Shown here piece by piece: positions 8,265 to 11,950 of a stretch of DNA of 64,000 bases. A program made the translations under genes and the position numbers. The stretch is from Fervidobacterium gondwanense DSM 13020 (GTDB taxonomy: Bacteria; Thermotogota; Thermotogae; Thermotogales; Fervidobacteriaceae). The notes beneath the pieces are model-generated. The model was not told the origin of the DNA and ran no database searches. It saw only the letters and a program-made list of their open reading frames with translations. Where the stretch lies: assembly GCF_900143265.1 (NCBI RefSeq), contig NZ_FRDJ01000001.1, positions 124,001 to 188,000 of the forward strand, given 5' to 3'. Positions within the stretch are counted from its first letter, which is position 1. Every line of letters starts with the position of its first letter.

Positions 8265-9392
8265 TTACCTATTAAGCCACACAACCCTGTTCACATAGTC
8301 TGTATACGAAAGAATTATTCTCAACACCTTTTCTGACACATTTGGCACAAAGTAGTCTCTAACTGGTTGAATTGACTCACCACTCTGATTTTCCAAAATC
8401 GCTAATCCTTGCAGTATTCGTTCTTTTTTCACGCCAACCATCATAACAGTTCCTTCTTCCATTGCTTCTGGGCGTTCGTGAGCTTCTCTGATGTTAAGCG
8501 CTCTGAGTTTTAGTATAGACGTTTCCTCACTAATCGTTCCACTGTCACTGAGAACACATTTTGCGTTCATTTGAAGTTTTACGTAATCTATAAACCCCAG
8601 AGCAGGCAAAACCCGTACAAGTTCAGAGAATTTTATGCCTTTCTTTTCAAGCCTTTTGCGAGTTCTTGGATGAGCACTGAAAATGATTGGAAGCTTGTAG
8701 ATATCTGCGATAGTGTTGATCGAATCAGCCAGTTCCAATAATTTCTCATCAACATCAACATTCTCTTCTCTGTGTGATGAAACAACAAAGTATTCTCCTG
8801 GCTCCAATCCGAGTCTTTTTAAAACATCTGATTTTTGTATCTTTGGCATGTTTTTCATTAGAACTTCATACATCGGGCTTCCAATCTTTATAACCCTATC
8901 AGGTGGGAACCCTTCCCTTATCAAGTACTCTCTGGAAATTGTGCTATAAGTTAGATTAATATCGGCAATATGATCAACAATACGCCTATTTATTTCTTCT
9001 GGAACTCTCTGATCAAAACACCTATTCCCTGCTTCATAATGGAAAACTGGTATATGCCTTCTCTTCGCAGCATACGCACTTAAACAGCTGTTCGTATCGC
9101 CGAGCACGAGGAATGCATCAGGTTTTTCTTTTTCTAAAACCGGATCGATGTTCTTCAAGATGTTTGCAACAGTTTCTACTGCATTCTCGCCGGCTGCGTT
9201 TAGGAAGTAGTCTGGTTTTCGTAATTCTAAATCCCTGAAGAAAACCTCATTTAGCTCATAGTCATAATTTTGCCCTGTGTGAACAAATATATGCTCTATC
9301 GCCTCTGACTCATCAAGCTTCTTTATTATCTCAGACAGTCTTATTATCTCTGGTCGTGTTCCAACAACTGTCATGACTTTGAGTTTTTTCAT
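8265..9392 (-). CDS. capG: UDP-N-acetylglucosamine 2-epimerase family protein, CapG/WbjD/FnlC type
   Basis: The 375-residue product starts MKKLKVMTVVGTRPEIIRLSE at ATG 9392 with AGGAGGT upstream. It contains FVHTGQNYDYELNEVFF, VLGDTNSCLSAYAAKR, FHYEAGNRCFDQRVPEE, HREENVD, FSAHPRTRKRLE and LSDSGTISEETSI, the full set of conserved regions of non-hydrolysing UDP-HexNAc 2-epimerases. The FHYEAGNRCFDQRVPEE form, with Asn-Arg-Cys, is characteristic of the CapG/WbjD subgroup, which performs the last step in UDP-N-acetyl-L-fucosamine synthesis: C2 epimerisation of UDP-N-acetyl-L-pneumosamine. CapE and CapF, the first two enzymes, lie directly upstream, separated only by an IS110 insertion. The insertion must impose a transcriptional barrier or supply a new promoter; only an extended -10-like element facing the opposite way was seen near 9417-9426. 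Confidence 0.9.
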   Translation of the reverse strand: MKKLKVMTVVGTRPEIIRLSEIIKKLDESEAIEHIFVHTGQNYDYELNEVFFRDLELRKPDYFLNAAGENAVETVANILKNIDPVLEKEKPDAFLVLGDTNSCLSAYAAKRRHIPVFHYEAGNRCFDQRVPEEINRRIVDHIADINLTYSTISREYLIREGFPPDRVIKIGSPMYEVLMKNMPKIQKSDVLKRLGLEPGEYFVVSSHREENVDVDEKLLELADSINTIADIYKLPIIFSAHPRTRKRLEKKGIKFSELVRVLPALGFIDYVKLQMNAKCVLSDSGTISEETSILKLRALNIREAHERPEAMEEGTVMMVGVKKERILQGLAILENQSGESIQPVRDYFVPNVSEKVLRIILSYTDYVNRVVWLNR

Positions 9393-9444
9393 ATCTTAGA
9401 CCTCCTACGTAAAATTATGGTATAAATATTTTAGTCAAAAGATA

Positions 9445-9585
9445 GGCAAGGGCAGGACAACTTTTTTCACCTTGGCTTTCAAGCCATTTTTGGAGTCTGT
9501 TGCCTGCCTTTAACCATGATAAGTTGATTGGGTTTGAAACCCTTGTCATCATGGAGGTTTGGTTCAGCAGGCACCTGCCCTCGCC
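9445..9585 (+). ncRNA. Structured leader of the IS110 element, candidate bridge (seek) RNA
   Basis: GGCAAGGGCAGG at 9445-9456 can pair with CCTGCCCTCGCC at 9574-9585 (11 of 12 positions), closing a domain of about 141 nt. Inside are a hairpin TGGCT-TTCA-AGCCA (9473-9486) and a longer stem CCATGAT (9514-9520) with ATCATGG (9548-9554). The latter is capped by GGGTTT-G-AAACCC (9530-9542), with an internal loop of about 9 and 5 bases between them. IS110 elements are known to encode bridge RNAs in the non-coding end upstream of the transposase, with internal loops that bind donor and target DNA. Position, size and fold agree with that. Whether it is transcribed is inference; an extended -10 (ATGGTATAAA) lies at 9417-9426. 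Confidence 0.6.
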
Positions 9586-9613
9586 TTTCTATCAAACAAA
9601 AGGAGGTCATATC

Positions 9614-10809
9614 ATGCATACCAAAGTTTTCTCCATTTTCGTTGGCATTGACGTTTCCAAAGAAAAGTTCAACGTCTGTGCCATTTCCAAGCCTGATTCC
9701 ATCATTTTCGAGAAAGTTTTCGAGATGTCCAAGCAAGGATTTGCCTCCTTTGTTGACAGTCTTTCTTCTTTCCCCAAAGACTCCATCGTTTTGGCTATGG
9801 AGTCTACCGGATGTTATCACCTCAATTTGCTTTCCTTCCTTGCCCTTAACGATTTCTCTTGCATCGTCCTTAACCCTCTTATTGTCAAAGATTCCCCTTC
9901 TATTTCTCTTAGAAAGACCAAAACCGACAAAATCGATGCTCGCTCTATCGCTTGCACTTTATTTTACCTTCAACACCAGCTTCCTTCTTCCCCATTCCTC
10001 AATCCTGAGTTCCGGGATATTGTTAGGGAACGTGAAAACATCATACATGATATTTCAAGAATCAAGAACAATATCGAAAAGCTTCTTAATCTCCTCTTCC
10101 CTGAGCTTGAAAGATTTACCAATATATACAACGATGCTATCTTAGACCTGCTTTCCTCTTTCCCTTCTGCTAAAGCTATTCAAAAGGCTTCTATCAATAC
10201 TCTGAATGCCTTCTTCTCAAAACCTGCCGGAAGAAAGCCGAAACTTTCTGTTGCTTTTCTAAAAGAACTTGCAAGTAATTCTATCGCTCAATATTGGCCT
10301 GTGAATGAGAAGTTACTTATCCAGAGTATCAGAGAGCTCAGATTTTTTCAACAGCAGCTCAAAGAATGCGATGAAATACTTACTCAATATTGCAAATGTT
10401 CTTCAATCGATGTAGATATTGAACTACTCACTTCAATTAAAGGCATCGGTCAAAATAGTGCGATGCATTTCTTGGCAGAAGCAAGATTTCAAGGTTCAGT
10501 TCCTACAAAAAGCTTATTGCATACTGTGGACTTGATCCAAGCATATATCAATCAGGTAAAAGCAAAATTGAAAGTCATATTTCGAAAAGAGGTAATGCAC
10601 ATTTAAGACGAATAATTTGGCTAATGTCAGTGAGTGTTGTAATACACAACGAATACTTTAGAGAATACTTTGAGAGAAAAAGAGCCCAAGGAATACCGTA
10701 CAAGAAAGCGATAATGGCAGTAGCGCACAAGCTGTTGAGAACGATGTATGCGATGTTGAAAAAGCGTGAAAAATTCAATGTTGGTTTTGCATTAGCTACT
10801 TCTGAATAA
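9614..10809 (+). pseudogene. IS110-family transposase (DEDD recombinase), frameshifted near the C-terminal catalytic region
   Basis: The start is ATG 9614 behind AGGAGGT at a 6-base spacing. The N-terminal RuvC-like domain is intact with GIDVSKEKFNV (Asp), AMESTGCYH (Glu) and KTDKIDARSIA (Asp, Asp), the DEDD set. The coiled middle region and the start of the Transposase_20 domain (LLTSIKGIGQNSAMHF) follow. At about 10500-10516 (CCTACAAAAAGC) the frame slips by one base. The continuation KKLIAYCGLDPSIYQSGKS, ISKRGNAHLRRIIWLMSVSV and AHKLLRTMYAML is perfect IS110 sequence in the -1 frame. Joined length is about 398 residues. The site is a run of five A, so either a one-base deletion has killed the gene or slippage makes some full-length protein. 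Confidence 0.85.
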
Positions 10810-10819
10810 ATTTTTAATT

Positions 10820-11935
10820 TTACATAGTTGACTCCAAATAGTATGTATCTGGTCGCTGAGGGTCAAATGGTTCATTTGCCCAGATTATGAAAACCACATC
10901 GGAATTGCCAATGTTCGTAATATTGTGCGTATATCCTGGTGGTATGTCAACAACCTCGAGTTTGTTACCGCTTACACGGTATTCTATAACTTCACTACAA
11001 TCTATTTTTCGGAATCTTATTATAGCTTCTCCGCTTACTACAAGAAATTTCTCAACTTTCGTATGGTGCCAGTGGTTGCCTTTTGTAATTCCAGGCTTTA
11101 TAACATTCACTGATATTTGACCTCTGTCTTCAGTTTTCAGGAATTCTGTAAAAGAACCTCTTTCATCAGCTTTCATATTCAGCTGGTAGGAAAATTGCTC
11201 TTCCGGAAGATAGCTAATGTATGTGCTATAAAGTTTCTTTACAAAATCGTCACCAACATTTGGAACAGAAAGATTCTCTCGTCCCTTTTTGAATGAGTAT
11301 AGCAAGTCAACTATATCACCTAACTTTACTGTATATTGAGTAGCCACTTCGCAGAACTTACCATCTCTATTTTCACAACCATTTAGTGCGTTTATGAATT
11401 CATTGACAACATCGTCTATGTAAACAAGCTTTAAAACAACATTTGGATCGTTCACTGTTATCGGTAGGTCACGAGCTATGTTATAACAGAATGTTGCGAT
11501 AGCACTATTGTAATTTGGACGGCACCATTTTCCAAAAACGTTCGGTAATCTATAAACAAAAACTTTTGCTCCAGTCTTCCTGCCGTAGTCGAATATCAAG
11601 TCCTCTGCCATTCTCTTTGTTCGACCATACGGATTATCCTTCTCTGCTTGAATTGATGATGTGAAAAGAACAGGAATTGGCTTTTCTCTCTTTTCCAATT
11701 GAGTGAGAAGATGCTTTGTAAACTCTACGTTTCCTTCTACAAACTCAGACTCTTCTTTGGGCCTGTTAACGCCTGCCAAGTGAAAGACAAAATCACAATC
11801 CCGGATGAATTTCCCCAACGAAAGCTCATCCGTTTCTTTGTCAACTTCGTAAATGTCATTATATCCCCTATTTCTAAGTTCTACTATAAGGTTCTTACCT
11901 ATAAACCCCTTTGCTCCTGTAACAAGAATTCTCAC
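10820..11935 (-). CDS. capF: CapF/FnlB: bifunctional SDR reductase with C-terminal cupin domain (UDP-L-FucNAc pathway)
   Basis: Best start is GTG 11933-11935 (MRILVTGAKGFIGKNLIVEL), 6 bases after GAGGTG; a GTG three codons earlier overlaps that binding site. The N-terminal Rossmann domain (GAKGFIG, FHLAGVNRPKEE, LFTSSIQAEKDNPYGRTKRMAED with the YxxxK-type pair) is followed near residue 245 by a cupin domain (ERGSFTEFLKT, ITKGNHWHHTKVEKFLVVSG, VDIPPGYTHNITNIG), whose His residues bind metal. The family name is UDP-2-acetamido-2,6-dideoxy-beta-L-talose 4-dehydrogenase. The cupin part epimerises at C3 and the SDR part reduces at C4, using the product of CapE. Length 371 residues is normal. The IS110 element abuts its 3' end, and the C-terminus looks natural (PDTYYLESTM). 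Confidence 0.93.
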   Translation of the reverse strand: MRILVTGAKGFIGKNLIVELRNRGYNDIYEVDKETDELSLGKFIRDCDFVFHLAGVNRPKEESEFVEGNVEFTKHLLTQLEKREKPIPVLFTSSIQAEKDNPYGRTKRMAEDLIFDYGRKTGAKVFVYRLPNVFGKWCRPNYNSAIATFCYNIARDLPITVNDPNVVLKLVYIDDVVNEFINALNGCENRDGKFCEVATQYTVKLGDIVDLLYSFKKGRENLSVPNVGDDFVKKLYSTYISYLPEEQFSYQLNMKADERGSFTEFLKTEDRGQISVNVIKPGITKGNHWHHTKVEKFLVVSGEAIIRFRKIDCSEVIEYRVSGNKLEVVDIPPGYTHNITNIGNSDVVFIIWANEPFDPQRPDTYYLESTM

Positions 11936-11950
11936 TACATCCACCTCTAT

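What the first reader, a model, noticed from the sequence alone, without database searches (positions are those of the whole stretch)
9430..9613. Closed-stem structured RNA upstream of an IS110 transposase: candidate bridge RNA
About 180 non-coding bases precede the transposase. GGCAAGGGCAGG at 9445-9456 pairs with CCTGCCCTCGCC at 9574-9585 and closes a 141-nt domain holding two further hairpins (9473-9486 and 9514-9554) with an internal loop. IS110 elements are known to make bridge RNAs from this position whose loops base-pair with target and donor DNA. A thermophile version would have to fold at about 65-75 C, which fits the GC-rich stems in an AT-rich genome.
Basis: partly seen in the sequence, partly recalled or inferred. 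Interest (0 to 1): 0.82.

Follow-up and report, generated by a model that had tools for sequence, protein, structure and literature searches.

The report
Bridge RNA aiming at ribosome-binding sites
The structured RNA upstream of this jumping gene is a genuine bridge RNA, and its guides steer the element into the ribosome-binding (Shine-Dalgarno) sites of host genes; the RNA-guided mechanism is already known, but this heat-loving branch and its targets make a clean natural test of it.

Summary
Confirmed. The stem, hairpins and coordinates are right, the fold is stronger than chance (z = -3.85), and 29 homologous RNAs show heavy compensatory change, including in the closing stem. It is the bridge RNA of an IS110-group element (9404-10833, core CT). 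The two sides of the first internal loop (LTG ~9465-9472, RTG 9489-9495) match the left and right target flanks. Across 16-18 elements, guides fit their own targets far better than permuted ones (p <= 5e-5), and an offset scan peaks exactly at both guides. The second loop (LDG 9522-9529, RDG 9553-9556) matches the element's own joined ends. Joining the ends also builds a TTGACT-N17-TATAAA promoter.

New here: the target is a Shine-Dalgarno site. In Fervidobacterium, 21 of 26 insertions sit in the SD of a gene reading away from the element, and related genomes hold the uninterrupted site. Guide variants between near-identical copies go with matching target variants. IS900 is a known IS110 element with the same kind of target, so this is a new member of a known kind. 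What differs from IS621 is one stem closing both loops. This copy is probably dead: its recombinase gene has a 4-nt deletion before the catalytic serine. Transcription is untested.

The parts
9404..10833 (+). IS110-group element, 1430 bp, bounded by core CT (9402-9403 left, 10832-10833 right); equally 9402-10831 because the core is shared
   Evidence: Boundaries from 27 copies in related Fervidobacterium genomes and from the uninterrupted site in two relatives
9431..9590 (+). Bridge RNA; structured core 9444-9588. The 5' end is inferred from the -10 box, not measured
   Evidence: Fold z -3.85; model R1 matches 29 homologues, E down to 1e-40; covariation
9445..9456 (+). P1 closing stem, 5' strand (pairs with 9574-9585)
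   Evidence: helix 1: 9 of 11 pairs with changes on both sides, 87% of cells paired
9574..9585 (+). P1 closing stem, 3' strand
9458..9461 (+). P2, base of the target arm, 5' strand CAAC (pairs with GTTG 9499-9502)
   Evidence: 100% of cells paired; CAAC/GTTG, CGAC/GTCG, GAAC/GTTC, GGAC/GTCC
9499..9502 (+). P2, 3' strand
9465..9472 (+). Left target guide (LTG) TTTCACCT, ending in core CU 9471-9472; contains UCACCU as in the 16S rRNA tail
   Evidence: 73 of 108 letters match own left target against 47.8 (sd 4.3) permuted; offset scan peaks at offset 0, z 5.2
9473..9486 (+). P3 hairpin between the target guides
9489..9495 (+). Right target guide (RTG) TTTGGAG, ending in core AG 9494-9495; pairs with CTCCAAA 10832-10838
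   Evidence: 58 of 64 match against 28.7 permuted; offset 0, z 7.0
9505..9509 (+). P4 of the donor arm, 5' strand (pairs with 9569-9573)
   Evidence: helix 4
9569..9573 (+). P4 of the donor arm, 3' strand
   Evidence: helix 4
9512..9515 (+). P5 of the donor arm, 5' strand AACC (pairs with GGTT 9561-9564)
   Evidence: AACC/GGTT, AGCC/GGCT, TCC/GGA
9561..9564 (+). P5 of the donor arm, 3' strand
9522..9529 (+). Left donor guide (LDG) AGTTGATT, matching right-end AGTTGACT 10826-10833 with a U.G wobble
   Evidence: GTTG[AG]TT in all intact homologous RNAs; GTTGACT at the right end of the distant elements whose end could be located
9530..9542 (+). P6 hairpin of the donor arm
9553..9556 (+). Right donor guide (RDG) GGAG, pairing with CTCC at the circle junction (core plus 9404-9405)
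   Evidence: Conserved; in L054 both sides change together (GAAG with CTTC)
9421..9426 (+). -10 box TATAAA of the promoter made on circularisation
   Evidence: TTGACT-N17/18-TATAA in 8 of 9 junctions examined
10828..10833 (+). -35 box TTGACT at the right end, overlapping the LDG-matched donor sequence
9391..9405 (-). Target: Shine-Dalgarno GGAGG and spacer of the host gene 8265-9392 (UDP-GlcNAc 2-epimerase-like, minus strand), kept intact by the insertion
   Evidence: uninterrupted in L160 (GGAGGTATAGAATATG) and L161 (GGAGGTTTGAGCGATAATG)
9614..10606 (+). Recombinase gene, truncated frame (DEDD_Tnp_IS110); 4-nt deletion after 10482
10489..10809 (+). Out-of-frame remnant of the catalytic-serine domain (Transposase_20)
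   Evidence: PF02371 E 4.8e-17

Best explanation
9431-9590 encodes the bridge RNA of an IS110-group element. One long stem (P1) closes a junction that carries a target-binding arm (P2, LTG, P3 hairpin, RTG) and a donor-binding arm (P4/P5, LDG, P6 hairpin, RDG). When the element circularises, its joined ends make a sigma-70-like promoter that would drive the RNA (inferred). The RNA loads the DEDD/serine recombinase (inferred from IS621). [quoted passage not shown] LDG and RDG pair likewise with the element's own joined ends, and the recombinase exchanges the strands at CT. In Fervidobacterium and several other hosts the target guides match the anti-Shine-Dalgarno sequence (UCACCU...CUCCUU/A), so the element lands in the ribosome-binding sites of genes reading away from it. 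Its terminal CC rebuilds GGAGG, so the SD and start codon survive. The window copy itself is probably immobile because its recombinase gene is frameshifted.
For: RNA structure: z -3.85; 27 of 34 pairs with changes on both sides, covariation score 0.421 against 0.205 shuffled, at most 0.107 when slid; sequence-only alignment, 98.8% of cells paired, 13 of 15 pairs with changes on both sides. Guides: 24 Fervidobacterium sites, first 3 nt 59 of 72 match against 31.1 permuted, p <= 1e-5; within genomes p = 0.013; RTG 58 of 64, LTG 73 of 108, both p <= 5e-5; best of 155 offsets is 0 for both guides. Donor. Core CT: right targets diverge straight after CT, as the RTGs do. SD targeting: 21 of 26 sites against 11% of CTCC, 28% of CCTCC, 4.7% of random positions; uninterrupted sites. 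Promoter. Recombinase: (ISCro4 E 6.8e-19, IS621 E 1.3e-16). Out-of-sample: G068 copies carry guide UUAUUCUUUCU and sit at ..TTCTTTCT-type sites, not at SDs.
Against: No transcript or biochemical data. The window copy's own LTG match is modest (ACCT contiguous plus scattered). L054 and L060 match their RTG weakly. LDG and its donor are both near-invariant, so they give complementarity but little covariation. Not all distant members sit at SDs (e.g. L057, L064, L072). Alignment A5 was fitted to the structure; A2 was not. Guides and flanks were located by eye before the permutation tests, though the offset scan supports the choice.
Confidence: 0.95

Rival explanations
1. The RNA is a cis-acting 5' leader of the transposase mRNA (an attenuator or translational block) rather than a guide.
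For: It lies directly upstream of the gene; the P3 hairpin followed by T's scores as terminator-like.
Against: A leader does not predict that loop bases match the flanking host DNA and change with it from copy to copy. The unpaired guide positions vary while the flanking helices keep pairing.
Confidence: 0.03
2. SD targeting is a passive survival bias: the element inserts at any CTCC and only insertions next to SDs are tolerated.
For: Insertions that keep the SD and start codon should be nearly neutral; sites inside genes would be purged.
Against: The flanking 3-6 nt beyond the core match each copy's own guide, which selection on the host gene does not predict. 21 of 26 sites at SDs is above the 28% of CCTCC sites.
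Confidence: 0.15
3. Insertion specificity resides in the recombinase protein, and the RNA-target match reflects common descent.
For: Related elements share both RNA and targets.
Against: In G001 near-identical copies with two different RTGs sit at differently flanked sites, and G002/G004 copies differ by one RTG base with the expected shift. The signal peaks at exactly the guide offsets.
Confidence: 0.03

Closest known systems
IS621 bridge RNA and recombinase (Durrant et al. 2024, PMC11208160; Hiraizumi et al. 2024, PMC11208158)
   Same: DEDD plus serine recombinase, RNA in the left end, two loops with LTG/RTG and LDG/RDG, CT core, short RDG, promoter rebuilt across the circle junction
   Different: Here one P1 stem closes both arms instead of a 5' stem loop, target loop and donor loop in series; RTG match reaches up to 8 nt including the core; target is the Shine-Dalgarno region rather than REP elements
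IS900 of Mycobacterium avium subsp. paratuberculosis (IS110 family)
   Same: Published target motif CATGNNNNNNTCTCCTT (PMC8141618), i.e. reverse complement of an SD plus ATG start codon; similar size (1451 bp)
   Different: Actinobacterial; the passages read in that paper give no RNA-guide explanation; not compared here at sequence level
seekRNA of ISEc21 (IS110) and ISEc11 (IS1111) (PMC11187229)
   Same: Upstream non-coding region needed for circle formation and targeting in the IS110 type; an RNA derived from it guides target choice
   Different: Other targets; IS1111 types carry the RNA downstream of the gene
IS110_I/II/III transposases of Fervidobacterium (PMC5398504)
   Same: The same family in the same genus, listed at up to 6 copies per genome and group
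   Different: That study classified transposases; the passages read here mention no RNA or target site

Membership tests
IS110-group element with bridge RNA | DEDD RuvC-like domain (PF01548) plus serine Tnp domain (PF02371) | tested here: met
   both domains intact in L009, L010, L050; in the window copy the second is out of frame
IS110-group element with bridge RNA | Structured non-coding RNA in the left end, upstream of the gene (the right end in IS1111) | tested here: met
   about 210 nt left end; right end beyond the stop codon about 24 nt
IS110-group element with bridge RNA | First loop matches and co-varies with the target | tested here: met
IS110-group element with bridge RNA | Second loop matches the donor (circle junction) | tested here: met
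   complementarity conserved; covariation seen only in L054 because the donor is near-invariant
IS110-group element with bridge RNA | Shared core dinucleotide, no other target duplication | tested here: met
   Core CT; uninterrupted site in relatives
IS110-group element with bridge RNA | Promoter reconstituted across the circle junction | tested here: met
   consensus match only; activity not measured
IS110-group element with bridge RNA | RNA is transcribed, binds the recombinase and directs recombination | not testable with these tools
   Needs RNA-seq and biochemistry
IS621-type RNA architecture (arms in series) | 5' stem loop followed by separate target and donor stem-loops | tested here: not met
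   P1 closes both arms in this clade; G068 elements by contrast show a stem enclosing only the target arm (read from sequence)
Rfam families | Match at gathering score | tested here: not met
   none over this RNA

The most novel reading that the evidence does not exclude
A widespread clade of IS110 elements (Thermotogota, Nitrospirota/Thermodesulfovibrio, Desulfofervidaceae, a Thermoplasmatota archaeon MAG) uses a closed-junction bridge RNA whose two target guides together spell the anti-Shine-Dalgarno tail of 16S rRNA. This gives the element an inexhaustible, conserved target at which insertion leaves the start signals of the host gene intact, and small mutations in the 3 nt beside the core retune which SDs are used, as near-identical copies in one genome show.
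Probability: 0.6. Interest if true: 0.65.

Novelty: new member of a known kind. Interest (0 to 1): 0.52.

Why it matters
It gives strong sequence-only evidence that bridge RNA guides set IS110 targets in nature, from guide variants within single genomes. It suggests an RNA-guide explanation for IS110 elements that hit translation starts, such as IS900, which can be tested directly. Intact copies in related thermophiles (L009, L010, L050) are candidate heat-stable bridge recombinases, and the closed-junction RNA is an alternative scaffold to IS621.

Tried and rejected
Junctions at 9420-9440 and 10810-10825: rejected, multi-copy comparison puts them at 9402-9405 and 10832-10835. Rfam: no match. 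RNAalifold on the first wide MAFFT alignment gave a poor consensus because the 3' strands slip; solved with a hand-built structure on 7 sequences and a covariance model. A conserved CCATGAT/ATCATGG helix in the donor loop: rejected, it breaks in relatives. An outward promoter in the left end for the host gene: a TTGACT-like site was seen by eye in the window, but it is not kept in G001 and the pattern scan reports none on that strand.

Full report
OBSERVATION. The 184-nt fold is far more stable than shuffles (z -3.85), and the closing stem remains in the MFE fold at 65 and 75 C. No Rfam family matches.

ELEMENT. The recombinase has 65-71% identical relatives in the same genus: 6 full or partial copies in G002, 6 in G004, 15 in G001 and 1 in G003. 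Comparing flanks shows a fixed left end (TACG/ATAAAA..) preceded by CTCC, and a right end ..ATAGTTGACTCC. Distant elements have the same right end up to GTTGACT, after which the host sequence differs (CC, GA, GT, TC), so the shared core is CT, as in IS621. The window element is therefore 9404-10833 (1430 bp). Two relatives carry the uninterrupted site: the upstream gene ends ..TACTACCTGGAGGTATAG / ..TACTTGGAGGTTTGA, and the same GGAGG serves as SD of the next gene. In the window the insertion sits in that GGAGG.

RNA STRUCTURE. Relatives of the recombinase at 35-57% identity in Thermodesulfovibrio, Thermotogaceae, Desulfofervidaceae, Nitrospirae, deltaproteobacteria, Omnitrophota, Delongbacteria and a Thermoplasmatota MAG carry an obviously related RNA. 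A covariance model built from 7 of them finds 29. On that alignment 27 of 34 pairs change on both sides, 88.7% of cells pair, and the covariation score is 0.421 against 0.205 (sd 0.010) shuffled and at most 0.107 slid. The closing stem P1 has changes on both sides in 9 of 11 pairs; its three outermost pairs hold only in about 60-70% of sequences. Because that alignment was fitted to the structure, four helices were recounted on a sequence-only MAFFT alignment: 98.8% of cells paired, 13 of 15 pairs with changes on both sides. P2 is the clearest: CAAC/GTTG, CGAC/GTCG, GAAC/GTTC, GGAC/GTCC.

GUIDES AND TARGET. The sequence after P3 (RTG), read as reverse complement from its core, matches the right flank: window CTCCAAA; L053 CTCCTAAA; L055 CTGTAATG; L058 CTCCTTTA; L059 CTCCTCT; L072 CTGAAA. 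Over 16 elements 58 of 64 letters beyond the core match, against 28.7 (sd 5.2) when guides are permuted. The sequence before P3 (LTG) matches the left flank, 73 of 108 against 47.8 (sd 4.3) in 18 elements; L057 (AGCTTCCT), L060 (GTTACCCCT) and L064 (TGCTTCCT) are long matches. Both have p <= 5e-5. A scan of 155 offsets along the RNA peaks exactly at the guide for both (z 7.0 and 5.2; next best 3.2). Inside the genus the same holds between near-identical copies: RTG variants reading CGT, TGT, TTA, CAA, AAA sit at sites beginning mostly with those letters (within-genome permutation p = 0.013). This is the decisive evidence that the RNA, not the protein alone, sets the site.

DONOR. LDG (GTTG[AG]TT in all intact homologues) matches the right end GTTGACT with wobbles; RDG GGAG matches CTCC at the circle junction. 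Both are near-invariant, so covariation is mostly unavailable; L054 is an exception, with GAAG in the RNA and CTTC at the junction. Circularisation makes TTGACT-N17/18-TATAA in 8 of 9 junctions examined. The integrated window copy has only weak promoter-like matches upstream.

SHINE-DALGARNO TARGETING. On the strand opposite the element, 21 of 26 Fervidobacterium sites have GGAG followed 5-11 nt later by a start codon of an ORF of at least 100 aa; the figures are 11% for CTCC, 28% for CCTCC, 44% for ACCTCC and 4.7% for random positions in the window. The nulls contain real SDs, so they are conservative; they come from this window only. Guides containing UCACCU and, in several elements, RTGs reading CTCCTTT/A spell the 16S tail GATCACCTCCTTT, which is present in this genome. 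The element's terminal CC rebuilds GGAGG, so the host gene keeps its SD and start codon. Not every distant member sits at an SD: the TTCCT-guide group does not, and G068 elements with guide UUAUUCUUUCU sit at ..TTCTTTCT-type sites, as guide-determined targeting predicts.

STATE OF THIS COPY. Compared with L009 and L010, the window recombinase gene lacks 4 nt after 10482, so the Transposase_20 domain with the catalytic serine is out of frame. It is the only full-length copy found in the assembly. Either it is dead or it depends on intact copies elsewhere; an assembly error cannot be excluded without reads.

SHOWN VERSUS INFERRED. Shown by sequence: structure, ends, core, guide-target matching, SD location, uninterrupted site, frameshift. 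Inferred from IS621 and seekRNA work (PMC11208160, PMC11208158, PMC11187229): transcription from the circle, binding to the recombinase, strand exchange. The recombinase is detectably related to the solved IS621 and ISCro4 proteins.

NOVELTY. Bridge RNAs are known, diverse and predicted in most IS110 elements (PMC11208160). An IS110 element aimed at SD plus start codon is known (IS900, motif CATGNNNNNNTCTCCTT, PMC8141618; the Doran 1997 work on translation-start targeting is recalled, not read). I therefore file this as a new member. The closed junction and the split anti-SD guide are variant features. The literature check covers only the open-access library; ISfinder and subscription papers were not searched.

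Noticed in passing
10820-11944 (-): The insertion changed the C-terminus of the upstream gene's product: relatives end ..YYLEV*, here ..YYLESTM*, the new stop lying inside the element.
   Followed up: yes
G000 contig ends: L033, L034, L035, L036, L037, L038, L039: Seven partial DEDD_Tnp_IS110 matches lie at contig ends of the same genome (VGIDVAKRNHWV..), apparently a second, multi-copy IS110-family element that broke the assembly.
   Followed up: no
L014 and L019 (G001): Two copies have identical flanks on both sides, pointing to a duplicated segment rather than two insertions.
   Followed up: no
L006 (G003): A decaying relative: RNA helices and LDG carry mismatches, the frame is broken, and no right end was found.
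   Followed up: partly
L042-L049 (G068): Another Thermotogota IS110 has an RNA with a stem enclosing only the target arm and a separate donor hairpin, with pyrimidine-tract targets; a natural contrast to the closed junction.
   Followed up: partly
L060:3904-3980: A c-di-GMP-I riboswitch lies downstream of the IS110 element in a Nitrospirae MAG; group II intron matches lie upstream of it.
   Followed up: no
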